DNA of 61,087 nt from Limisphaerales bacterium (GTDB taxonomy: Bacteria; Verrucomicrobiota; Verrucomicrobiia; Limisphaerales; SXTU01): NCBI GenBank assembly GCA_009773355.1, contig WRPG01000028.1, forward strand, positions 1 through 61,087, read 5' to 3'. Positions 14,515 through 56,500 of the stretch are shown here, one piece after another (position 1 is the first letter of the stretch; every line of letters starts with the position of its first letter). The notes beneath the pieces are model-generated. The model saw only the letters and a program-made list of their open reading frames with translations. It did no database searches and was not told where the DNA came from. The translations under genes were made by a program, and so were the position numbers.

Positions 14515-14720
14515 AGCAACGGAGTTGCGACCGAAAGTAGCCCACGGCGTGAGCCGTGGGTGTCTTGCAGGATGGAGGCGAGCCGCAGCGCGGCGGCAGC
14601 GAGGGCGCGGGTTCGTGGTGGGTTGGACCAGGTGTCTGCCGCCCCTCCGGGGCTGGTCTCGTTCTGCCACTGGACCCACGGCTTGCGCCTTGGGCTACTT
14701 TCGGTCGCAACTCCGTTGCT
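14515..14720. repeat. Large inverted repeat, about 206 bp
   Basis: The left arm 14515-14561 (starting AGCAACGGAGTTGCGACCGA) is matched in reverse complement by 14674-14720 (ending GTCGCAACTCCGTTGCT) with only a few mismatches over about 47 bases. The arms contain the words AAAGTAGCCCACGG and GAGCCGTGGGT. The 112-base core holds GCCGCCCCTCCGGGGC. It has the layout of a large REPIN or a small non-autonomous element. Confidence 0.75.
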
Positions 14721-34114: not shown

Positions 34115-35485
34115 ATGCAACCAGTCCTCGACTATCTCGCCGCGAACGAAACCCGCTTCCTCTCCGAACTCTGCGACTACCTCCGCTTCCCCAGCGTCTC
34201 CGCGCAGCCGCAGCACAAGCCTGACTTGGAGAAGTGCGCGCAGTGGATTGCTGCGCACTGCCGCGCCATCGGCCTCGAAGTCGAGGTCTGCCCCACCGCC
34301 GGCAACCCAATCGTGCTCGCCCGCACGCCGCGCAAGGCCGGCCCGCGCAAGCCGCACTACGTCGTCTATGGCCACTACGACGTGCAGCCGCCCGAGCCGC
34401 TGGAGCTGTGGAAGTCCCCGCCCTTCGAGCCTCGTGTTGATGGCTGCAACCTCTTCGCCCGCGGCTCCTGCGATAACAAGGGCCAGCACTTCGCGCACTT
34501 GAAGGCGGCCGAGGCCTACCTCAAGACCGGCACGGAACTGCCCTGCGACCTCACCTTCCTCATCGAGGGCGAGGAGGAGATCGGCTGCGAAAACCTCGCG
34601 CCCTTCCTGCGCGCGCGGAAGAAGGATTTGCAGTGCGAGGCCTTCGTCATTTCGGACAACGGCCTGCCCAGCAAGCGCCACCCCGCGCTCACCTACGCTC
34701 TGCGCGGCATCCTCGCCGTGGAGATCCGCCTCGACGGGCCGAACCGTGACCTGCACTCCGGCCTCTTCGGCGGCGCGGTGGACAACCCGGCGATGGCCCT
34801 CGCGCAGATGCTCGCCAAGCTCCGCGACAAGCACGGACGCGTCACCGTCCCCGGCTTCTACGACGACGTCGCCCCGCTCTCGAAATACGAGCGCGCGATG
34901 CTGGCGAAGCTCCCCGGCAACGAAGCCACCTTCCGCAAGCTCGTCGGCGTGCCGGAGCTGTTCGGGGAAAAGGGTTTTACCAGCACGGAGCGCCGCACTG
35001 CGCGCCCGACCTGTGAGATCAACGGCCTCACCAGCGGTTACCAGGGCGAGGGCAGCAAGACCATCGTGCCCGCGTGGGCGCGCGCGAAGCTCACCTTCCG
35101 CCTCGTGCCGGACATGGACCCGAAACGGATTCAGAAGCTCATCGTCGCGCACTTGAAGAAGCTCTGCCCGCCAAGCTGCAAACTGACGGTCGAGGCCGGC
35201 CACGCCGGCGAGCCGTATCTCGTGCAACCCGACAGCCCGCGTGCGCAGGCCGCGTTGCGTGCGCTGCGCGAGGCCTTCGGTTGCGAGCCGGTCCTGATGC
35301 GCGAAGGCGGCTCCATTCCCATTGTGAACGACTTCAAGCGCATCCTCGGCGTCGAGACGCTGCTCCTCGGCCTCTCGCTCCCCGACGACAACGCGCACTC
35401 GCCCAACGAGAAGTTCGATCTCGACTGCTTCCACGCGGGGATGCGGATGAGCGCCTTGCTGTGGGCGGAGCTGGCGAAGCTGTGA
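34115..35485 (+). CDS. M20 family metallopeptidase (dipeptidase)
   Basis: This 456-residue cytoplasmic zinc enzyme of the M20/ArgE/DapE/CPG2 group would cleave dipeptides or N-acyl amino acids. Metal ligands and catalytic residues are in the expected places: His87 and Asp89 in YGHYDVQPPEP, Asp120 in RGSCDNKGQ, the Glu pair in EGEEEIG near 151-155, Asp in VISDNGLP, and a C-terminal His in DNAHSPNEKFDL. The dimerisation lid is inserted around residues 210-340 (GPNRDLHSGLFGGAVDNP). The closest subtype is the M20 dipeptidase group containing eukaryotic CNDP-like enzymes. No signal peptide is present. It stands alone between palindromic repeats. Confidence 0.93.
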   Translation: MQPVLDYLAANETRFLSELCDYLRFPSVSAQPQHKPDLEKCAQWIAAHCRAIGLEVEVCPTAGNPIVLARTPRKAGPRKPHYVVYGHYDVQPPEPLELWKSPPFEPRVDGCNLFARGSCDNKGQHFAHLKAAEAYLKTGTELPCDLTFLIEGEEEIGCENLAPFLRARKKDLQCEAFVISDNGLPSKRHPALTYALRGILAVEIRLDGPNRDLHSGLFGGAVDNPAMALAQMLAKLRDKHGRVTVPGFYDDVAPLSKYERAMLAKLPGNEATFRKLVGVPELFGEKGFTSTERRTARPTCEINGLTSGYQGEGSKTIVPAWARAKLTFRLVPDMDPKRIQKLIVAHLKKLCPPSCKLTVEAGHAGEPYLVQPDSPRAQAALRALREAFGCEPVLMREGGSIPIVNDFKRILGVETLLLGLSLPDDNAHSPNEKFDLDCFHAGMRMSALLWAELAKL

Positions 35486-35488
35486 GAC

Positions 35489-35527
35489 GGGGAGAGTGTT
35501 CAGTAACCAGTATCCAGTGTTCAGTTA
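35489..35527. repeat. CAGT-rich word repeat
   Basis: AGTGTTCAGTAACCAGTATC and a following CAGTGTTCAGTTA repeat the word CAGT every 7-8 bases. Similar text occurs at 2016-2040 and, within the debranching gene, at 43292-43324. Confidence 0.45.
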
Positions 35528-37512
35528 AGGCTGCGGCCACCTGCAATGGCTAATGGCCGTTGCGCATCCTCCTTGCCCGCTGCCCGCAGCGCCGCCGACA
35601 GCCGAACCAGCTCCGTGTCCAGCTCCGCCTGTTCTTCCGGTGACAACGCCTGCCGGCCATATCGGGTGGCGCAAAAAGCCGTGGTGACGCGCTCCACCGG
35701 CCCACGGACCGGCACCGGCTCGCCGCGCAGCCTGTCGAGGAACTCACGCGGTGTTTCGTGGGGTCGGCGCACCCGGCCGTGGCGCGCGAGCAGCCGCAGC
35801 ATCCGCCCGTAGGTGTCGCTCGCAAACCGCGCGGAGAGCGCCGCCGCATCCGCCCGCGACCCGCGCCGGGCACGGATGGCCCACCGGCGTTTCAGCCACG
35901 CGCCCAGGGCCACCGACGCCGCCAGTCCCAGCAACGGCGGCCCGAACCTGCGCGCCAAGTCGAGCACGCCGCCGAGACCTTGCGCGGAAACCTGGAAGAA
36001 GTTGCGCTGCGCTACGGCATCGAAGTTGACGATGTTCAAATACCAGATGACATCGAGCGCATCGAACAGCTCGGCGGGTTCCCAGCGCGGAGGCGGCAAC
36101 GTGGCGCGCGGTGTGGCATCGAACTGCACCCAGCCACGCTCCGCAAAGTGCGCCTCCACCCACGCGTGCGCGTCGCGCAGCCGCACGTCGCGCCAGCCGG
36201 AGAGCCAGTTGCGCTCGCCGGGCACGAAGCCGACGACCACGCGCGCGGGAACGCCCTGCATCCGCAGCAGGAGCGCGAGCGCGGAGGCGAAGCGCTCGCA
36301 GTGGCCGCGCCGTTCCCTGAGCAGGAATTCCTCCAGCGCGTTGAGCCGGCTGAGTTCCGGCGCGCCCAGCTCGTAGGTGAACGTGTCGCGCAAATGCGCT
36401 TCCAATCGGCGCGCTTGGGCGTGCGGATCGGTGGTGCCCGCCAGCAACTGCTCCGCCCACGCGCGGAGTTGCGGCGAGGGCGCGGGGTGGGCGAGGAGCC
36501 GCTCGCGCTGCCAGTCGCGCAGGTGCTCGGCGGGCGGGCGCGGGTTGACCCAGTATTCGTAGAGGTTGTTGCCGGAGTTCCACATCGCCTCGCAGACGAC
36601 GATGCCGTTCGCGTTCCGGCCGGGCGTGCGGAAGAAGCGGCCCGACACGCGCGCCGGATGACCATCCACCGGCAGCACGCGGTTCAGCGCGGCGACGTCC
36701 TTCACGCGCACGCGGCGGTGCCGGTGGCCGGCCAGCCACGAAGGCGAGGTGTTCGCCAGCGGCAGCCAGGGCAGGCCCGCGTCCGGTTTCCACTGGCGGC
36801 CGTCGAAGTCTGTCAGCGCCATCATGCGCAGGTAGCCGACCTCGTTGGCTTCGACCTGCAACAAGAGCTTGCCGGAGTTCGCCGCCCCGCCGCGCGACGG
36901 GTCGAGCACGGAATCCAGCGCGCCGCCCGGCAAGCCCCCGCCCGGCAACCGCGCCGCCAGCGGCGTGCCGAGAAATCCGCGCGGCACGAGCACGAAGACC
37001 GCGATCATCACGGCGAGGATGGCCACGGCGCTGGCAAACCCGACGCGCGGCAGCTTCATCGGTGCGGCCGGCGCACTGGCGAAGGATTCGGCCTCCAATT
37101 CCAGCAAGGCCTTCGGCAGCAGCACGAGCGTCGCAATGAGGATGAGGATGAACCGGTGGTCGAGGATGACCGTGCAGGCGACGGCGAGGTGGCCGCTGGC
37201 GACGATGAGTGAGAAAAGCTTTTCACGCCGGTCCAGCGGGCGCATGAGCCGCAGCGCCTGCAGCAGCGTCAGCCCGTGCCCGACGGCGAAGTGCGCGCTG
37301 ACGCCAAACGCGGGCGCGAGCTGCCACGCCAGCACGCCGCCGAGCACGATGGCCGCCATGTCCGCCGCCTGCCCGAGGTGCATTGGCCGCCGTGGCAACG
37401 TCAGGCAGACGACCCAGAGCAGCACGTTCAGCAGCGGCATCGCCACATCGTCCCACGACAGACCCTGGCAGATCAGGCCCAGCAGGATGAACTGGTGGCG
37501 CGCACTTCTCAC
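35521..37512 (-). CDS. Transglutaminase-like membrane protein (TgpA type)
   Basis: This 663-residue protein has several N-terminal membrane helices (LILLGLICQGLSWDD region, then AVAILAVMIAVFVLVPRGFL near residue 165), matching the DUF3488 region of TgpA-like proteins. The transglutaminase core follows with the catalytic Cys in RRGHCERFASALALLLRMQG near 395, His in LRDAHAWVEAHF and Asp in VQFDATPR. A C-terminal membrane helix (GPPLLGLAASVALGAWL) precedes a cytoplasmic DUF4129-like tail. The protease-like fold probably acts in the periplasm. Its start overlaps the stop of the upstream DUF58 gene by four bases, showing translational coupling. The DUF58/TgpA pair normally travels with a MoxR ATPase, which is absent here. 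Confidence 0.9.
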   Translation of the reverse strand: MRSARHQFILLGLICQGLSWDDVAMPLLNVLLWVVCLTLPRRPMHLGQAADMAAIVLGGVLAWQLAPAFGVSAHFAVGHGLTLLQALRLMRPLDRREKLFSLIVASGHLAVACTVILDHRFILILIATLVLLPKALLELEAESFASAPAAPMKLPRVGFASAVAILAVMIAVFVLVPRGFLGTPLAARLPGGGLPGGALDSVLDPSRGGAANSGKLLLQVEANEVGYLRMMALTDFDGRQWKPDAGLPWLPLANTSPSWLAGHRHRRVRVKDVAALNRVLPVDGHPARVSGRFFRTPGRNANGIVVCEAMWNSGNNLYEYWVNPRPPAEHLRDWQRERLLAHPAPSPQLRAWAEQLLAGTTDPHAQARRLEAHLRDTFTYELGAPELSRLNALEEFLLRERRGHCERFASALALLLRMQGVPARVVVGFVPGERNWLSGWRDVRLRDAHAWVEAHFAERGWVQFDATPRATLPPPRWEPAELFDALDVIWYLNIVNFDAVAQRNFFQVSAQGLGGVLDLARRFGPPLLGLAASVALGAWLKRRWAIRARRGSRADAAALSARFASDTYGRMLRLLARHGRVRRPHETPREFLDRLRGEPVPVRGPVERVTTAFCATRYGRQALSPEEQAELDTELVRLSAALRAAGKEDAQRPLAIAGGRSLN

Positions 37513-38633
37513 GCGACTTCCTCCATGCTGCGCCCGCTAAACCGCCAGACGGGCGCATCTGCGAAGTTCTCGCGCTCTGGCACTTTGGCCGGCAGGTAGA
37601 CACTGACGCTCCGCCCGCGTCGGCGAAGTTCCGCCACGGCCTCGCTCGCGGCTGGACTGGCCTGCGTGAGCACCAGATGCACGGCGGATTTCACCGAGAG
37701 CCGCTCGAACGCGCCGCGCAGGCGCTCGCGGTCCACGCTCCTTGGCTCGATGGGCAGCCGCGCGAGCCGGTCGAGGATTTCGTGGCCGTCGGCGAAGGGC
37801 GGGATCAAGTCCGGCTCCAGCACCGCGAGGTCGAGCCACTCGACGTGATGCCCGGCGTCCAGCGCGGCGAAGACCAGCGAGCCGGCGGCGCGCACGGCGT
37901 CGTCGAAGACCTTCGCGTCGCCGGAGGAGCCGCAGTCGAGCACGACAGCAACGCGGCCGGACAGTTCTTCATCAAAGACCTTCACCATCAGGCCGAGGCC
38001 CTTCGCGCTGCTCGCCCAGTGGATTTGCCGCAGCGAATCGCCGGCTTGGTGCGGGCGCACGCCACTGAACTGGTCCCCCGCGCCCGTCTGCCGATGTCCT
38101 CGAAACTTCCCGCCCACCATCACGTCGAAGCCCGCCGCGCGCGGAGCCGACACCGGATAAACCGCCGGATGCACCACAACCTCGCCCGCGAGCGCCAGCC
38201 GGCGCGCAACCTTCACGAGGCCGAACGGAAAGGCCGTCGCCAGCCGCAGCCGGTCATGGGCGAAGACGCCGCGCCGGTGGAACTGCAGCTCGGGAACCAC
38301 GCTCGCATCTTCGCCCGCCGCAAGTTGCGGCAGCTTGAACAAACGGCTCGCCGCCGACTCCGCCGCGATGAACGCAACCGGAAACTTGCCCGCGTTGCGC
38401 ACCTGCCACGGCTGGTTGAGGCGCTGCCCTTCGACGACGTGCGCCGTGCCCGGCGCGATGACTTCCAGCCGGCGCACCGCGCGCCAGGCGGAAACGAGGT
38501 TCACCGCGAAGCAGCCGAGAATGATCCCCGCCGGCGCGAGCAGCAGGCCGGATTGCGACGTGATGGACGCGCCGTAAAGGAGCGCCACGAGGCCGAGGAA
38601 GACCCAGCCGGCCGGGGTGATGCGCACGCTCAT
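37509..38633 (-). CDS. DUF58 domain protein
   Basis: This 374-residue protein has a two-helix N-terminal hairpin (AGWVFLGLVALLYGASITSQ and LLLAPAGIILGCFAVNLVSA), an Ig-like beta region and a C-terminal DUF58/vWA-like domain. The family signature GDQFSGVRPHQAGDSLRQIH, WASSAKG begins near residue 190, and VAVVLDCGSSGD lies near 225. DUF58 proteins usually work with MoxR ATPases and transglutaminase-like partners, perhaps as assembly or chaperone modules. It is the first gene of a two-gene operon with the transglutaminase protein, overlapping it by four bases. Confidence 0.9.
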   Translation of the reverse strand: MSVRITPAGWVFLGLVALLYGASITSQSGLLLAPAGIILGCFAVNLVSAWRAVRRLEVIAPGTAHVVEGQRLNQPWQVRNAGKFPVAFIAAESAASRLFKLPQLAAGEDASVVPELQFHRRGVFAHDRLRLATAFPFGLVKVARRLALAGEVVVHPAVYPVSAPRAAGFDVMVGGKFRGHRQTGAGDQFSGVRPHQAGDSLRQIHWASSAKGLGLMVKVFDEELSGRVAVVLDCGSSGDAKVFDDAVRAAGSLVFAALDAGHHVEWLDLAVLEPDLIPPFADGHEILDRLARLPIEPRSVDRERLRGAFERLSVKSAVHLVLTQASPAASEAVAELRRRGRSVSVYLPAKVPERENFADAPVWRFSGRSMEEVA

Positions 38634-40882: not shown

Positions 40883-40892
40883 ACCGCCGCGC

Positions 40893-40990
40893 CGTGCCGG
40901 CGATTTGCAATCGCCGTCGGGCGTTTCCGATTGCTGGTTGCATCTCCGACTGACAAGCGGTCCTGACGGCGGTTGCAAACCGCCGGCACG
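40893..40990. repeat. REPIN between convergent genes
   Basis: The left CGTGCCGGCGATTTGCAATC, followed by GCCGTCGG, and the right GGCGGTTGCAAACCGCCGGC, followed by ACG, form two hairpins with inverted flanks. The same left and right halves appear at 43468-43537 inside the debranching gene. It may also act as a terminator for dacB and the debranching gene. Confidence 0.8.
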
Positions 40991-41002
40991 GGCTCCGGCG
41001 CG

Positions 41003-44000
41003 TCAGCCGTGTCGGCCAATCTGGAGTTCTTGCCACACGCGCAGCGCCTCCGTCGCGCCCCAGGCCTGCGCGTCGCAGCCGCGCTGGGTGTGCGGGGCGT
41101 CGCCGTCCACGATTTCGGGGAGCTGGCCGAGGCAGCCCTCGTTCAGCAGTTCGCTCGCGCTGCCGAGATAGGCGCGGGCGGCGGCGACGGCCTCAGGCGC
41201 GAGATCGTGGGCGCGGGCGAGGGCTTCGCAGAAGACGGGAAATGTCCAGGTCCACGCGGTGCCGTTGTGATAGGCGGGTTTGCGGCGAGTGTCTTCGTCG
41301 CCCTCGTAGCGGCCCCAGTAGGGATTCGCCGGGTCGTTGAGCAACTGCCCGCTTGCGCTGTAAATCGGCAGCGGCGGCGTGACGGGCAGCGGCGCAAGTG
41401 AACGCAGCGCGCCGGGCACAACGAGGTGGCGGAGCGCGGCGTCCACTGTGCGACGGGCGTGTTCGCCGCTCATCAGACCGAGGCTGATGGGGAACAGGCA
41501 GTTGCTCCGCAGCGCCTCGTCGCGCATAGCGTCGCGGGCGGAGATTCCGGGCTTGGCGAGCAGGCAGTCGGCGAACCAGCCCTGGTCCTCCAGCCAGAAC
41601 AACTCGTTCAGCGACGTCTCCGCGCGGGCGGCAAGTTCGCTCCAAGCCTCGCCGTCGGGCGCGACGCCGAGGCGGTCGAGCTGACGGAGGAGTCGAATCC
41701 AGAGTGCTTGAATCTCCACCGGGTAGCCTTCGCGTGGCGTGCCGGCGGGGTAGTTCGTGTCCATCCAGGTGAAGTGGCTCGGACTCCAGACCAGGCCGCT
41801 TGCAGTGTCCACGCGAATGCCGTTGGGCGTGCCGCGCAGGTAGCCGTTGGCGATGGTGCGCAGCACGTCGGCGAGGGTGCGGCCCGAGGCGTCCACGGGC
41901 GTGCCGCAGAACTCCGAAACCTTGAACCTTGAACCTTGAACCTTGAACTCCGCCTCGGCGAAGTCCTCGCACACGACGCCATACCACAGCGGCGCGTCGC
42001 TGGTGTCACGGTTGCTGGCGTTGTCGCCGTAGATGGCGTTGGGCAGCGTGCCGTTCTCCGCGAAGCGGCCGAATGTGATGAGGATTTGCCTCACCTCGTC
42101 GCGCAGGCCGGCGGCGAGCAGCCCGCGCGCGCAGATGAGCGTGTCGCGGCCCCAGTCGAGGAACCACGGGTAGCCGGCGATGACGGTCTTGCCCGCGTCG
42201 CGCCGCACGACGAACGCGCGGATGGCGCGGTTGAGCGCGGAGGCGAAGTCGGCTGGAGCGCGGACGCCCACGTCCGCAGCCGGGGTTGACACGGACGTGG
42301 GCGTCCGCGCTCCGGGTGCCACGGCGGGCACAGCCAGCAGTTCCAACTGCGCCTCCAACGGCGCGCTCTCGGTGATGAAGTCGAAGAGGGCGCGGGTTTT
42401 CGGCGCGCTGGTGGGGCGAGGCTCCGGCCGAGCCGGCGGCGCGGGCGGAGCTGCCACCCCTTCCGGCTCACCACGTCCCTCCGGCTCGGCGGGAGCCGGG
42501 CCCCACCGGGTTGGTGGCTGCGTCATCCGCCCCGCCTCCGTGAAGTGAAACCCGGCCAGATCAAACTGCTCTTCCGCCTCCGCGCTGGCGGCTAGCGTGA
42601 CCGCCTCGCCCTTGCGCAGCGGCAGTTCAAACCAGCCGGGACTGTAGGCATCGCCGCAGCCTTCCTGCCCGCGCGTGGCCTCCACGGGATGCGGCACGTT
42701 CACCGACCACTCGCCCTCGTGATGGTAGCGGCCCGCGTCGGCCCAGACCTTGAGTTGGCGGTCGGGTGCCGGCGTGAAGACGAAGCCGGCGCGGCCTTGG
42801 AGCGAGTGCGAGTTCGTGCCGAGGTGGTGTTCGGAGCCGGGGTTGCGCTTGGTCTCGCAGTGGAAGCTGCGGTCCTCGATTTCGAAACGAACGGTGAGGC
42901 TCACGCTGCACTCCGTCGGCAGCTCGCGGCCCAACGCGGGCGCGTGCGGTGGGCGGACGAAGCGCAGAAGCGTCGTGTTCCTGCCGGGCACCATGTCGGC
43001 GAGCAGGTGAATCTCCACGCTGCGGCCGTCGCCCGCGTTGGCGACGAACCGCCAGAGCGCCGGCGGGCCGGGCGTGAAGGCGACGAGGTTTTCGCCGTTG
43101 AGCGCGGTGATGAAGCCGTCGGCGTTCACCCACGCGCGCAGGCGCTTCACGAAGACGTGGCGGTCCACAGGGACGCTGGCGTGGAGGTTCGCGCCGAGGA
43201 CGCAGTCGTATTTCGAGCGGACGGTGCCGAGGTCCGCGCCGATGCGGGCCATCGCACCGGAGCCGTTGGTGAGCAGGGCGAGGGCGGAGGAGTAGTCAGT
43301 GATTAGTGACGAGTGATTAGTCGGCTCAGGCGGGAGGAAGCGGATGGTGCTGCTGACGGCGGCGGGCGTGGCGGCGAGCCGGTCGAGCGAGAGTGTGGCG
43401 TCGCCGATGAAGTGCTGTGGGGCGAAGCAGGCGACGTGGCCGTTCGTGGTGGGGATGGAGTCGGTGTGTGCCGGCGATTTGCAATCGCCGTCGGTGGACT
43501 GCGAATGCTCTGGGCGGCGGTTGCAAACCGCCGGCACGAGCGTCGCGCGGAACGGCACCGTGTCGCGCACCAGTAGCCAGTGGCCGGGCGGGACGAGCAG
43601 GATGCGCTTGGTGTCCGCGAGCGTCCACTCGACCACGGGCGCGTAGGGGCTGCCTTCGGACGGAGCGCGGCTCTCCGAGCCGCAGCCGGCGGCTTGCGCC
43701 GAAACATTCTCACTCGATGGGGCAACTCCGCTCACCGCTTGCTGCGGCTCGGAGAGCCGCGCTCCGGGGCGGTGGAGGGCAGCAAGAAAGGCTTTCGGGT
43801 CCGCGTCCACCTGTGCGGCCAGCTTCCGCCAGTTCGTCGCGCCGAGCTGCTCGATGGGCTTCGCTTGCGCGAGTGCGGTAAGAGCAAAAGCGGCTTGAGC
43901 ACGGGCGCGACGGTAGGCTTCCCCGTGCAGCCCGATGGGTTTTTCCGTGGCGCTGAGGCAGTGCGCGGTTCCGGCGCTGAGGGTGAAGGTAATTTTCCCG

Positions 44001-45769
44001 TCGTGGACTTCGTGGCGCAGCGGCGGTTGGGGCGGGGCTTCCGCCGGGTCGGGGGAATGCGCTGCGTTCGGATGCGCCTCCGGCTCGGCGGGAGCCTCGC
44101 CCCACCGGGACAGCAAGTCGTGCTGCACCAATTCGGGTGCCACATCGAGCGTCAGCCGGTGTTCGCGCTCGGGGTCGGTGTTCACGAGCACCAGCACGGA
44201 GTCTAGACCTTCCTCGGAGTCGCGGCGGAGCGCGTAGATGACGGAGTCGGACGGGCTGAGGCGCGTGAGTTTCGCGCTGTCGAAGAACGCGGGATGCTCC
44301 GCGAGCAGCGCGTTGAGCCGCGCGAGTTCGGGAACGATGTTCTGCTCGCTGCCCCACGCGAGGGCGCGGCAGGAATGGACGTTGATCTTCTCAGCGCAGA
44401 GCCACTCGACGCCGCAGGTGAAGCCGAAGCCGCCGTTCACGCTCGTCAGCGCGGAGAGCTGGTTGCGCAGCAATGACCAGGCGCGCCCGCGCTTCGCGAG
44501 GCGGTCGTTATCGTGCGTCTCGCTGTAGTGGACGAGCGTGCCGACGCGATGGCTTTGCTGGTGCGCGTGGCCGAGATAGCCGGCGACCTGTTGCGCGCTG
44601 AACTCCTGAAACAACTCGGAGTAGGCCCATTGCATCCCGCCCTCGGTGAGCAGCGCCTCCGTGTCGCCCCAGCCGCCGCCGAGGCCTTCGAGCAGGAAGA
44701 GCGTGTCGGGAAACTCCTCGCGGACGCGGGCGATGATGTGCTGCCACGCGGGCGCGGGCACCTTGTAGCCGGCGTCGCAGCGGAAGCCGTCCACGCCGCG
44801 CCGGCACCAGGTGAGCAGCGCATCCGCGATGTATTCCCAGAGCGCGGGGTCGCGTTGGGCCAGCTCAACCAAGTCCTCCCAGACCGTGCCCCACGCGCCG
44901 GGACTCTCGAAGTGACCGTCCGCCTTGCGCACGAACCACTCGGGGTGGTTCTCCTGCAACCACGAGCCCCAGCCGGTGTGGTTGATGACGATGTCGAGGA
45001 AGACGCGGCCGCCGCGCGCGTGGACGGCGGACGTGAGTTCCTGAAACTGCTCCACGCCGGTCGTGCGCTGGTCGAACTCCACGAGCGCCGGGTCAATGCC
45101 AGTCAAATCCTCCGCCGCATACGGGCTGCCGAAGCGCCCGAAGCGCGCGAAGGTCGTGGGCGTGGGATTCACCGGCAGCAGGTGCAGGATGCGGCAGCCG
45201 AGCGTGTCGAAGATGTGCGGGAGCTGGCGCGTGAGGTCGCGCAGTTTGCCGGAGGGCGGGATGACGGTGTAGCCGAGCTGGTCCAGCACAGCCATCTGGG
45301 ACTTGCGCGTGAGGTCGGCGGTGGTGGGCAGCGACTTTGTCTCGCCGAACATCCGGGTGAACGCGCAGTAAATCGTGTTGGCCGTGCGCGCCCAATTCGG
45401 ATGCACGTTGACACCGAAATCATCGCCGTCGGGCCAGTGTTGGAAGCCGGACGGGTCGAGCAGGTAGGGCTTCGCCTTGAACCAACCGACCTCCGTGAGC
45501 GGGAGCGCGAGCTGCCATTCGCCGTCGGCCCAACGCATCGGAATATCGCGCCACGACGCGCCGGCCAGTGGGACTTTCTGAAACTTGGACTGGATGACCT
45601 CGCGGCGGATGGCGGCGGCGCGGCCCAGGTTCGTGCGGAGCCGGGCGGTCCAGCCGGTGTCGGCCCACTCACGGGCGCGCGGGTGCGCGAGCGTGAAGGG
45701 GAGGCAGTCGCCGACGAATTGGACGCGGCGCTCGCCCGCGCCGGGAGTCATGCTCGGTCGTTCCATCAC
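41003..45769 (-). CDS. Bifunctional glycogen debranching enzyme with embedded REPs
   Basis: This 1588-residue protein unites two activities, as in indirect debranching. The N-terminal GH13 barrel has VFLDIVINHTG, the nucleophile Asp in DGFRCDAG near residue 332, the acid Glu in LFLLEGLGGG near 360 and SETHDND near 423, typical of 4-alpha-glucanotransferase. The C-terminal GH133-like amylo-1,6-glucosidase has YPWFLDWGRDTLICARGLL near residue 1197 and GTLPNAIYGDNASNRDTSDA. Seven palindromic or word repeats lie in frame between or near the domains, for example GARTPTSVSTPAADVGVRAP and FKVQGSRFKV. They lengthen the linkers and leave both catalytic cores intact. The gene is convergent with dacB and divergent from the GH63-like gene. 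Confidence 0.9.
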   Translation of the reverse strand: MMERPSMTPGAGERRVQFVGDCLPFTLAHPRAREWADTGWTARLRTNLGRAAAIRREVIQSKFQKVPLAGASWRDIPMRWADGEWQLALPLTEVGWFKAKPYLLDPSGFQHWPDGDDFGVNVHPNWARTANTIYCAFTRMFGETKSLPTTADLTRKSQMAVLDQLGYTVIPPSGKLRDLTRQLPHIFDTLGCRILHLLPVNPTPTTFARFGRFGSPYAAEDLTGIDPALVEFDQRTTGVEQFQELTSAVHARGGRVFLDIVINHTGWGSWLQENHPEWFVRKADGHFESPGAWGTVWEDLVELAQRDPALWEYIADALLTWCRRGVDGFRCDAGYKVPAPAWQHIIARVREEFPDTLFLLEGLGGGWGDTEALLTEGGMQWAYSELFQEFSAQQVAGYLGHAHQQSHRVGTLVHYSETHDNDRLAKRGRAWSLLRNQLSALTSVNGGFGFTCGVEWLCAEKINVHSCRALAWGSEQNIVPELARLNALLAEHPAFFDSAKLTRLSPSDSVIYALRRDSEEGLDSVLVLVNTDPEREHRLTLDVAPELVQHDLLSRWGEAPAEPEAHPNAAHSPDPAEAPPQPPLRHEVHDGKITFTLSAGTAHCLSATEKPIGLHGEAYRRARAQAAFALTALAQAKPIEQLGATNWRKLAAQVDADPKAFLAALHRPGARLSEPQQAVSGVAPSSENVSAQAAGCGSESRAPSEGSPYAPVVEWTLADTKRILLVPPGHWLLVRDTVPFRATLVPAVCNRRPEHSQSTDGDCKSPAHTDSIPTTNGHVACFAPQHFIGDATLSLDRLAATPAAVSSTIRFLPPEPTNHSSLITDYSSALALLTNGSGAMARIGADLGTVRSKYDCVLGANLHASVPVDRHVFVKRLRAWVNADGFITALNGENLVAFTPGPPALWRFVANAGDGRSVEIHLLADMVPGRNTTLLRFVRPPHAPALGRELPTECSVSLTVRFEIEDRSFHCETKRNPGSEHHLGTNSHSLQGRAGFVFTPAPDRQLKVWADAGRYHHEGEWSVNVPHPVEATRGQEGCGDAYSPGWFELPLRKGEAVTLAASAEAEEQFDLAGFHFTEAGRMTQPPTRWGPAPAEPEGRGEPEGVAAPPAPPARPEPRPTSAPKTRALFDFITESAPLEAQLELLAVPAVAPGARTPTSVSTPAADVGVRAPADFASALNRAIRAFVVRRDAGKTVIAGYPWFLDWGRDTLICARGLLAAGLRDEVRQILITFGRFAENGTLPNAIYGDNASNRDTSDAPLWYGVVCEDFAEAEFKVQGSRFKVSEFCGTPVDASGRTLADVLRTIANGYLRGTPNGIRVDTASGLVWSPSHFTWMDTNYPAGTPREGYPVEIQALWIRLLRQLDRLGVAPDGEAWSELAARAETSLNELFWLEDQGWFADCLLAKPGISARDAMRDEALRSNCLFPISLGLMSGEHARRTVDAALRHLVVPGALRSLAPLPVTPPLPIYSASGQLLNDPANPYWGRYEGDEDTRRKPAYHNGTAWTWTFPVFCEALARAHDLAPEAVAAARAYLGSASELLNEGCLGQLPEIVDGDAPHTQRGCDAQAWGATEALRVWQELQIGRHG
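41917..41949. repeat. AACCTTG tandem words in coding sequence
   Basis: The word AACCTTG repeats four times in 33 bases. On the minus strand it is read as FKVQGSRFKV within the C-terminal glucosidase domain (about residues 1274-1284). Confidence 0.75.
42255..42313. repeat. In-frame REPIN in debranching gene
   Basis: GGAGCGCGGACGCCCACGTC with its inverse GACGTGGGCGTCCGCGCTCC spans 59 bases around a GGGGTTGAC-type core; translated as GARTPTSVSTPAADVGVRAP. Confidence 0.85.
42410..42507. repeat. In-frame REPIN (GGCTCGGCGGGAGCC family)
   Basis: The left GGTGGGGCGAGGCTCCGGCC and right CGGGAGCCGGGCCCCACC are inverse. The right half is nearly identical over 32 bases to the copy at 44078-44109. Translated on the minus strand as RWGPAPAEPEG and onward. 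Confidence 0.8.
43292..43324. repeat. In-frame GTGATTAGT word repeat
   Basis: AGTCAGTGATTAGTGACGAG followed by TGATTAGTCGG, read on the minus strand as TNHSSLITDYS. It resembles the CAGT/TTAG word clusters seen between genes. Confidence 0.6.
43468..43537. repeat. In-frame REPIN, copy of 40893 family
   Basis: GTGCCGGCGATTTGCAATCG at left and TTGCAAACCGCCGGCAC at right repeat both halves of the intergenic element at 40893-40990 with a different spacer. Translated as VPAVCNRRP then TDGDCKSPA. Confidence 0.88.
43661..43766. repeat. In-frame REPIN in debranching gene
   Basis: CGGAGCGCGGCTCTCCGAGC and its inverse GCTCGGAGAGCCGCGCTCCG are perfect over 25 bases and enclose about 56 bases. Translated as GARLSEPQQAVSG through CGSESRAPS. 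Confidence 0.85.
44078..44109. repeat. In-frame single REP
   Basis: CTCCGGCTCGGCGGGAGCCT followed by CGCCCCACCGGG, read on the minus strand as RWGEAPAEPE. It is nearly identical to the right half of the element at 42410-42507. Confidence 0.8.
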
Positions 45770-55159: not shown

Positions 55160-56500
55160 ATGAACCTCGTCCAGATCACTCCCGGCGCGGGCGGGATGTA
55201 TTGCGGGAACTGCTTCCGCGACAACGCGCTGGTCGCCGCGCTGCGCCAGCGCGGGCATGAGGTGCTCATGGTGCCGCTCTACCTGCCCATGACCCTGGAC
55301 GAGGAGAGCCAGGCCGCCGGCGTGCCGACCTTCTTCGGCGGCATCAATGTTTATCTCCAGCAGCAGTCCGCGTTTTTCCGCCGCGCGCCCAAGTGGCTGC
55401 ACTCGCTGCTCGACTCGCCCGCGCTGCTCAAGCTCGCCGCCGGTCGCGCCGCCAAGACCCAGGCCGCCGACGTGGGCGAACTCACGCTCTCAATGTTGCG
55501 CGGCGAGGAGGGCAACCAGGTGCGCGAACTCGATGAACTGGTCGCCTGGCTCAAGACCCAGCCGCGTCCCGACGTGGTGCTGCTCTCAAACGCGTTGCTC
55601 GTCGGCTTCACGCGCAAGCTCAAGGCCGAACTCGGCTGCAAGGTCGTCTGCAATCTGCAAGGCGAAGACGCCTACCTCGACTCCATGCCCAGCCCGCTGC
55701 GCGAACGGGTCTGGGCGCTGCTGGCCGAGCGCTGCCGCGACTGCGACCTGTTCATCGCCCCCAGCCGCTACTTCGGCGACACGATGGCGAAACGGCTCAA
55801 TCTGCCGGCGGACAAAGTAAGAGTGGTTTTCAACGGCATCTCGTTGGAGGGCTATGGTGACAAGTGGCAGGTGGCAGGTGACACGGCGGCGTCCGCAACC
55901 CCCTTGTCACCTGCCACGAGCCACCTGTCACCCACTCTTGGTTACTTCGCCCGCATGTGCCGCGAGAAAGGCCTCGACCTGCTGGTCGAGACGTTCATCG
56001 AGTTGAAGCGGCGCAACGCGGTGCCGGGTTTGAAACTCAAAGTCGGCGGCGGTTGCGGGCCGGGGGATGAGCCATTCGTTGCGCAGCTCAAGGAACACCT
56101 GCGTCGGGCCGGCTGCCTTGATGACGTATCCTTTCATCCCAACCTGACGCGCGAGCAAAAGGTCGCGTTCTTGCAATCGCTCACCGTTTTCTCCGTGCCC
56201 GCGCTCTACGGCGAGGGCTTCGGCCTCTATCTCATCGAGGCGCTGGCGGCGGGCGTGCCGGTGGTGCAGCCGCGCCATGCGGCGTTTCCCGAACTCGTCG
56301 AGGCCACCGGCGGCGGCGTCATCGCCGAGGCGAACGCGGCGGCGCTGGCGGCGGCCATCGAGGCGCTCCTGCTCGACCCGGCGCGGCTGCGGACGCTGGG
56401 CGAAGCCGGCAGACGCGCGGTGGGCGAGCGGTTCACCGTGGACCGGATGGCGGCGGAGGTCGCCCAGGCAGCGGGCAGCCTTGTTCGCGCGCGAGGGTGA
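55160..56500 (+). CDS. Glycosyltransferase family 4-like, with in-frame repeat
   Basis: This 446-residue GT-B enzyme starts with MNLVQITPGAGGMYCGNCFR, where the G-G-x-x-x-x glycine loop binds the acceptor side. The donor domain begins LGYFARMCREKGLDLLVETF near residue 258 and has LKVGGGCGPGD, VSFHPNLTREQKVAFLQSLT and the E-x-G-x-x-x-x-E pattern in YGEGFGLYLIEALAAGVPVV near 345-363. A palindromic repeat at 55856-55932 is read in frame as KWQVAGDTAASATPLSPA and lies exactly between the two Rossmann domains. Seven-base spacing from the halogenase-like gene suggests cotranscription, perhaps for a modified glycoside. Confidence 0.9.
   Translation: MNLVQITPGAGGMYCGNCFRDNALVAALRQRGHEVLMVPLYLPMTLDEESQAAGVPTFFGGINVYLQQQSAFFRRAPKWLHSLLDSPALLKLAAGRAAKTQAADVGELTLSMLRGEEGNQVRELDELVAWLKTQPRPDVVLLSNALLVGFTRKLKAELGCKVVCNLQGEDAYLDSMPSPLRERVWALLAERCRDCDLFIAPSRYFGDTMAKRLNLPADKVRVVFNGISLEGYGDKWQVAGDTAASATPLSPATSHLSPTLGYFARMCREKGLDLLVETFIELKRRNAVPGLKLKVGGGCGPGDEPFVAQLKEHLRRAGCLDDVSFHPNLTREQKVAFLQSLTVFSVPALYGEGFGLYLIEALAAGVPVVQPRHAAFPELVEATGGGVIAEANAAALAAAIEALLLDPARLRTLGEAGRRAVGERFTVDRMAAEVAQAAGSLVRARG
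55856..55932. repeat. In-frame REPIN in glycosyltransferase gene
   Basis: GGTGACAAGTGGCAGGTGGC with AGGTGACA, and the inverse TGTCACCTGCCACGAGCCAC with CTGTCACC, frame about 21 bases. The insert falls in the interdomain linker. Confidence 0.85.

What the first reader, a model, noticed from the sequence alone, without database searches (positions are those of the whole stretch)
41003..45769. Debranching enzyme gene carries about seven in-frame palindromic repeats
Repeats at 41917, 42255, 42410, 43292, 43468, 43661 and 44078 are all read through in frame. Six fall in linkers between the GH13 and GH133-like cores. The resulting peptides (GARTPTSVSTPAADVGVRAP, RWGEAPAEPE, CNRRP..GDCKSPA) are typical of repeat translation, not of enzyme sequence. 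The gene resembles the situation of Rickettsia palindromic elements, in a different phylum, and suggests that the elements spread under selection to keep frame.
Basis: partly seen in the sequence, partly recalled or inferred. Interest (0 to 1): 0.85.

Follow-up and report, generated by a model that had tools for sequence, protein, structure and literature searches.

The report
Mobile DNA hairpins inside enzyme loops
In an uncultured verrucomicrobial genus, small hairpin-shaped mobile DNA repeats of several unrelated families have repeatedly landed in frame in the same flexible loops of a glycogen-debranching enzyme, and sister species carry different repeats in the same loops, so a known oddity (mobile repeats read as protein) can here be followed event by event.

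Summary
The observation largely holds. The 41003-45769(-) gene is an intact 1588-aa glycogen debranching enzyme with seven in-frame repeat inserts. Four are intact inverted doublets (42255, 42410, 43468, 43661), one is a worn doublet (44078), and two (41917, 43292) are 7-nt tandem arrays, not palindromes. Same-genus relatives have intact orthologues with empty sites at two inserts (44078: +69 nt; 43661: +108 nt) and other repeats at others. At 43468, six species carry family A, but G010 carries unrelated family D although its sister G009 (97% support) has A. At the 42410 linker, five species carry repeats of four families. The doublets are best explained as REPINs (REP doublets mobilised by RAYT transposases): G002's linker insert belongs to the family flanking its own RAYT gene. 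Genome-wide, doublets are about ten-fold rarer in genes than between them; intergenic copies have as many open frames as genic ones, and lengths modulo 3 are not biased. Frame is kept by loss of disruptive insertions, not by elements adapted to coding. It is not a Rickettsia RPE. Intragenic REP dimers were already reported, notably in the verrucomicrobium Opitutus terrae (PMC3733652). New are event-level resolution, loops reused by unrelated families, and in-frame heptamer arrays.

The parts
41003..45769 (-). Glycogen debranching enzyme gene, 1588 aa (GH13-like, GDE_N, GDE_C), uninterrupted despite seven in-frame repeat inserts
41918..41948 (-). Heptamer tandem array (AACCTTG), read as FKVQGSRFKV, inside the GDE_C domain; sister species have other heptamers here (AGGTCCA, CAGCGGT) or none
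42255..42313 (-). Family C REP doublet (GGAGCGCGGACG...), GARTPTSVSTPAADVGVRAP; recognisable at the same place in G007, G004, G005, G010
42410..42507 (-). Family B REP doublet (GGTGGGGCGAGGCTCC...), RWGPAPAEPE...; the same linker holds family E in G007, F in G002, a B variant in G010 and half of A in G004
43290..43321 (-). Heptamer-type array (ACTAATC-like), TNHSSLITDYSS; ACTCTTC in G010 and G009; other heptamers at the same residues in other genera
43468..43537 (-). Family A REP doublet (GTGCCGGCG...), VPAVCNRRP..DGDCKSPA; shared by six species, replaced by family D in G010
43661..43766 (-). Family C REP doublet with perfectly complementary 26-nt arms; found only in this genome, +108 nt against the empty site
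44025..44109 (-). Worn family B doublet, RWGEAPAEPE...; found only in this genome, net +69 nt with about 18 nt of the original loop replaced
40892..40991 (.). Intergenic family A doublet just past the 3' end of the gene, same family as the 43468 insert

Best explanation
The palindromic inserts are REPINs: short mobile elements made of two REP hairpins in inverted orientation, copied into new sites by RAYT (Y1/HUH tyrosine) transposases. Several unrelated REPIN families live in this verrucomicrobial genus. They insert in many places; most insertions in genes are lost because they break the frame, meet a stop or disturb the fold. The GC-rich elements happen to be stop-free in about two thirds of frames, so copies of suitable net length that land in a flexible loop survive as translated, near-neutral peptides. 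The debranching enzyme has several tolerant loops, so unrelated families accumulate and replace one another there. Shown: the inserts, the empty and differently filled sites, loop location in a predicted model, and RAYT genes flanked by four REP families (two of which, C and F, occur in debranching-enzyme genes of the genus). Inferred: RAYT-driven movement, translation, and near-neutrality. The heptamer arrays use the same loops but probably arise by another route (slippage).
For: Empty sites: 44078 is 39 nt in all nine same-genus relatives sampled there and 108 nt here; 43661 is 75 nt in six relatives and 183 nt here. Same site, unrelated families: 43468 is A in six species but D in G010, whose sister G009 (97% bootstrap) has A; the linker holds B, E, F, a B variant or half of A. 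Other genera have doublets or heptamers at the same residues; of 29 listed events 25 have another within 15 residues, 11.9 expected, p=5e-5. RAYT link: PF01797 genes flanked by the same REPs: family C in G000 and G010, GT in G000 and G046, F in G002, H in G010; the three tested match REP-associated tyrosine transposase, one over its cut-off. Loops: the five palindromic inserts fall in stretches without secondary structure, pLDDT mostly 33-70 (52-79 for 43468). Frame as filter: 4.10 vs 4.05 open frames outside vs inside genes; density ratio 0.10 against about 0.22 mechanical. Second gene: AddA carries six elements in frame, one loop holding D in three species and A in two.
Against: No RAYT flanked on both sides by families A, B, D or E was found in the genomes sampled, so for most inserts in this gene the mobiliser is inferred. 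Insert boundaries are not uniform (43661 is the element plus 2 nt; 44078 replaced about 18 nt), so no common target rule was established. All genomes are MAGs, translation is unproven, and the gene caller was home-made. Family D is over-represented in genes (16 in, 7 out, against 27 and 66 for other families, p=0.0006) and its frame use is skewed (12 of 16 and 11 of 16), so some peptide-level or target preference may exist.
Confidence: 0.8

Rival explanations
1. Inserts are selected because they help the protein (linker length, solubility) or regulate the mRNA through its hairpins.
For: Family D is over-represented in genes and its frame use favours the hydrophilic SSRREEA..LLTSAAT reading. 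At 43468 the two local stems are 96.9% paired over six species with three doubly changed pairs and a covariation score of 0.262 against 0.02-0.09 when slid, reached in 1 of 500 shuffles, while the peptide changes (VCNRRP, AFSRRP, ASSRRP).
Against: The identity of the insert is exchanged between sister species; relatives with empty sites have intact enzymes; in-gene density is only a tenth of intergenic; the longer inter-arm palindrome shows no covariation. Six related sequences are few, and arm-wise conversion from other copies would give the same pattern.
Confidence: 0.12
2. Members of the Rickettsia palindromic element family, or of another MITE family with target duplications, brought in by horizontal transfer.
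For: Same outward picture: palindromes of similar size translated in frame in conserved enzymes; RPEs are reviewed as MITE-like in PMC2229807.
Against: The units are REP hairpins in inverted doublets, associated where known with a RAYT; GTAG, GTGG, GTGC or GGAG ends; no consistent target duplication seen.
Confidence: 0.03
3. Assembly or binning artefact: repeats misjoined into the gene.
For: All genomes are metagenome assemblies, and repeats are typical break points.
Against: Six independent assemblies share the 43468 family A doublet with a homologous spacer; five share the 42255 doublet; frames are open; elements sit inside contigs.
Confidence: 0.02

Closest known systems
Intragenic GTAG/CGTC REPs and REP dimers (PMC3733652), notably in Opitutus terrae (Verrucomicrobia)
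   Same: REP dimers inside genes encoding 20-30 aa, double insertions in one gene, many in DNA-repair genes; loops or linkers and RAYT mobilisation already proposed there
   Different: Here several unrelated families sit in one enzyme, with empty and differently filled sites in sister species, same-loop reuse across genera, and also in-frame heptamer arrays; families A (GTGC) and C (GGAG) do not bear the GTAG tag
REPINs and RAYTs (PMC3116915)
   Same: Inverted REP doublets of about 55-105 nt with RAYT genes flanked by the same REPs
   Different: In P. fluorescens SBW25 only 14 of 1,067 16-mer copies overlap genes; here 43 of 132 family-defined doublets are inside predicted genes
Rickettsia palindromic elements (reviewed in PMC2229807)
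   Same: In-frame palindromic inserts in conserved protein genes; one such enzyme (Gmk) reported active with its insert
   Different: Different phylum; REP-doublet architecture; RAYT association; several families at once
Short heptanucleotide tandem repeats of bacteria (heptamer excess noted in PMC4692102; cyanobacterial STRRs from memory)
   Same: Perfect 7-nt arrays of many different sequences
   Different: Here found in frame in the same loops that take REPINs, and inside some REPIN spacers

Membership tests
REPIN (REP doublet) | Two REP hairpins in inverted orientation, short spacer, many copies per genome | tested here: met
   132 paired arms of nine families in 1.26 Mb; each family A arm is itself a hairpin, with pairing kept across species
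REPIN (REP doublet) | Same REP flanks a RAYT gene | tested here: met
   Families C, GT, F, H. Not found for A, B, D, E, so met for C (in this gene) and F (in the G002 orthologue), only inferred for A and B
REPIN (REP doublet) | RAYT excises or inserts the doublet | not testable with these tools
   Needs a biochemical or cell assay
GTAG-tagged REP superfamily | GTAG at one end of the palindrome | tested here: inconclusive
   Met for most copies of D, E, GT, H and one of two G; B begins GTGG; A (GTGC, 25 of 25) and C (GGAG, 39 of 40) do not have it
Rickettsia palindromic element | Sequence of a known RPE family | not tested
   No comparison with RPE consensus sequences was run; architecture and RAYT link point elsewhere
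MITE | Target site duplication | tested here: inconclusive
   Empty sites at 43661 (+2 nt beyond the element) and 44078 (about 18 nt replaced) show no common duplication

The most novel reading that the evidence does not exclude
Certain protein loops are standing landing sites where one REPIN family directly exchanges for another in frame (A for D between sister species), possibly by hairpin-templated exchange, and where the REP hairpin itself is maintained in coding sequence by compensatory change while the peptide drifts.
Probability: 0.15. Interest if true: 0.75.

Novelty: new member of a known kind. Interest (0 to 1): 0.5.

Why it matters
Whether mobile repeats read as protein are tolerated junk or raw material has mostly been argued from single genomes. 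This genus offers orthologous enzymes with empty, filled and swapped sites, two good test genes (debranching enzyme and AddA) and RAYT genes paired with REPs, so insertion, tolerance and turnover can be measured. It also warns annotators that linker peptides such as GSSRREEAP or GDCKSPA in these MAGs are translated repeats, not domains.

Tried and rejected
Rejected: selection on the elements to keep frame (lengths modulo 3 unbiased, open frames equal inside and outside genes); the long inter-arm palindrome as the conserved structure (no covariation); assembly artefact (orthologous inserts in independent MAGs). L136 carries a family D doublet in its debranching gene but has stops and a frameshift, so it was left out of the structure alignment.

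Full report
What is there. The window lies on contig C97 of a 6.16-Mb metagenome-assembled genome (G000, 162 contigs); its named relatives are mostly MAGs of Verrucomicrobia, many labelled subdivision 3 or Limisphaerales. The 41003-45769(-) ORF is uninterrupted and encodes a 1588-aa glycogen debranching enzyme: GH13-like (174-337), GDE_N (832-1058), GDE_C (1185-1576). All seven reported places carry repeats. Four are inverted doublets with good arms, one (44078) is a worn doublet, and two (41917, 43292) are 7-nt tandem arrays. A 3rd-order Markov control gives 3 such inverted doublets in 458 kb where 87 are observed.

Orthologues. All ten same-genus genomes searched, and most of the order, carry the enzyme; seven same-genus copies are recovered as long open frames of 1451-1697 aa, the others are cut by contig ends. 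Alignment at nucleotide level: the 44078 insert is unique to this genome (108 nt against 39 nt in nine relatives); the 43661 insert is unique to this genome (183 against 75 nt in six relatives, +108 = 106-nt element plus 2 nt). The 43468 site carries family A in six species; G001 and G003 are 33 nt shorter with no element, and G010 has instead a family D doublet. G010 and G009 are sisters (97% bootstrap) and G009 has A, so A was most simply lost from, or replaced in, G010. Most other nodes of that tree are weakly supported. In the linker before GDE_C, this genome has B, G007 E, G002 F, G010 a B variant and G004 half of A, while in G009 and G006 the same stretch is 78-81 nt against 342 here. 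The 42255 family C doublet is recognisable in five species. Heptamer arrays differ too: at 41917 AACCTTG, CAGCGGT and AGGTCCA types; at 43292 ACTAATC and ACTCTTC.

Other genera. Among 69 debranching genes from the named collection (which include the same-genus L081-L083), eight have at least one inverted repeat at this threshold, against 3 repeats in total in shuffled controls. Of the eight, two are same-genus copies already counted (L081, L082), two look incidental (L110, L116) and four lie in other genera (L084, L099, L101, L136), so the count across the order is only a modest excess. Family identity (D in L084 and L136, C in L099), the many heptamer arrays and the positions are more telling: residues 814-826, 745-768, 543-579, 991 and 1069-1175 are hit repeatedly by different repeats. 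Treating the listed events as independent, 25 of 29 have another within 15 residues (11.9 expected, p=5e-5), and 15 of 18 outside the linker (5.3 expected). The event list was drawn up by hand and its independence is an assumption.

Structure. An AlphaFold2 model of residues 530-1588 with 58 sequences (mean pLDDT 82, pTM 0.84) places the five palindromic inserts in stretches without secondary structure and of low confidence (10-residue means: 44078 48-70; 43661 36-58; 43468 52-79; 42410 and 42255 mostly 33-45), the 43292 array at 68, and the 41917 array in ordered helix (93-94). Foldseek finds GH94-type phosphorylases and glycogen debranching enzymes among the best solved structures.

Mobiliser. 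This genome has three PF01797 genes. One is flanked on both sides by GTAG-CTCGACATTCCAATGTCGAG and one by family C arms; in G002 one is flanked by family F, the family sitting in G002's own debranching gene; in G010 one is flanked by C and one by H; in G046 one by the GT family. The three that were scanned match NCBIfam REP-associated tyrosine transposase, one over its cut-off. No RAYT flanked on both sides by A, B, D or E was found. Family D arms occur in 71 of 116 genomes of the order.

Genome-wide statistics. In 1.26 Mb (922 genes from a codon-usage gene caller written here, 85% coding), 132 doublets could be assigned to nine families: 43 inside single genes, 73 outside, 16 at edges. Density in genes is 0.10 of that outside; a random copy is open in 0.65 of frames, so stop and length filtering alone would pass about 0.22. 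Intergenic sites are not a neutral baseline, so this is a rough comparison. Lengths in genes are unbiased modulo 3. Some genes collect several: six genes have two or more (2.8 expected) and four have three or more (0.33 expected); the record is AddA with six, next to AddB with three. AddA orthologues also show unrelated repeats in the same loop. Family D is over-represented in genes and prefers one frame; one frame of its 5' arm is closed by TAG.

Covariation. Over six species at 43468 the two local stems keep 96.9% pairing with three doubly changed pairs (score 0.262 against 0.02-0.09 when slid; 1 of 500 shuffles reaches it), whereas the inter-arm pairing shows none. The individual REP hairpin is thus the unit kept, by selection or by conversion; six related sequences cannot tell which.

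Known work. PMC3733652 reported intragenic REPs, more than half of them dimers or grouped repeats coding 20-30 aa, with the most intragenic GTAG cases in Opitutus terrae, many in repair genes, and proposed loops and RAYTs. REPINs are defined in PMC3116915 and RPEs are reviewed in PMC2229807. The present case is a new, unusually well-resolved member of that kind; the reuse of loops by unrelated families and the in-frame heptamers are what I did not find described in the papers read.

Noticed in passing
window 14515-14560(-), 14675-14720(+); G000:C114:8271-8315: Rfam Acido-Lenti-1 (RF01687, filed as sRNA) has 22 hits in this genome, several in convergent pairs, and one lies directly upstream of a Y1_Tnp gene (C114:8379-8720). 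It may be a transposase-associated mobile hairpin rather than an sRNA.
   Followed up: partly
L069:3952-5751 (G000:C27:163952-165751): A 599-aa ORF joins a 4-hydroxyproline epimerase/proline racemase in frame to a REP-associated tyrosine transposase (over the NCBIfam cut-off), with family C REPs at the junction and after it.
   Followed up: partly
G000:C132:30614-34633 and 34842-38501 (L178): AddA carries six and AddB three in-frame repeat elements; AddA orthologues carry unrelated repeats in the same loop.
   Followed up: partly
1.26 Mb of G000: Perfect tandem arrays peak sharply at period 7: 65 arrays of many sequences, against 3 at period 8, 4 at 9 and 3 at 10; 24 are inside genes.
   Followed up: partly
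e.g. G000:C132:33154-33187, C42:22399-22425, C74:20290-20307: Heptamer arrays sit inside the spacers of family D doublets; 7-nt slippage there could shift and restore frame.
   Followed up: no
window 55856-55932: In-frame inverted heptamer-type array inside a glycosyltransferase gene, 55160-56500.
   Followed up: no
G000:C27:372228-376094 (L079): A 1288-aa DUF7133/HEAT/cytochrome c protein carries four in-frame elements.
   Followed up: no
   Followed up: no
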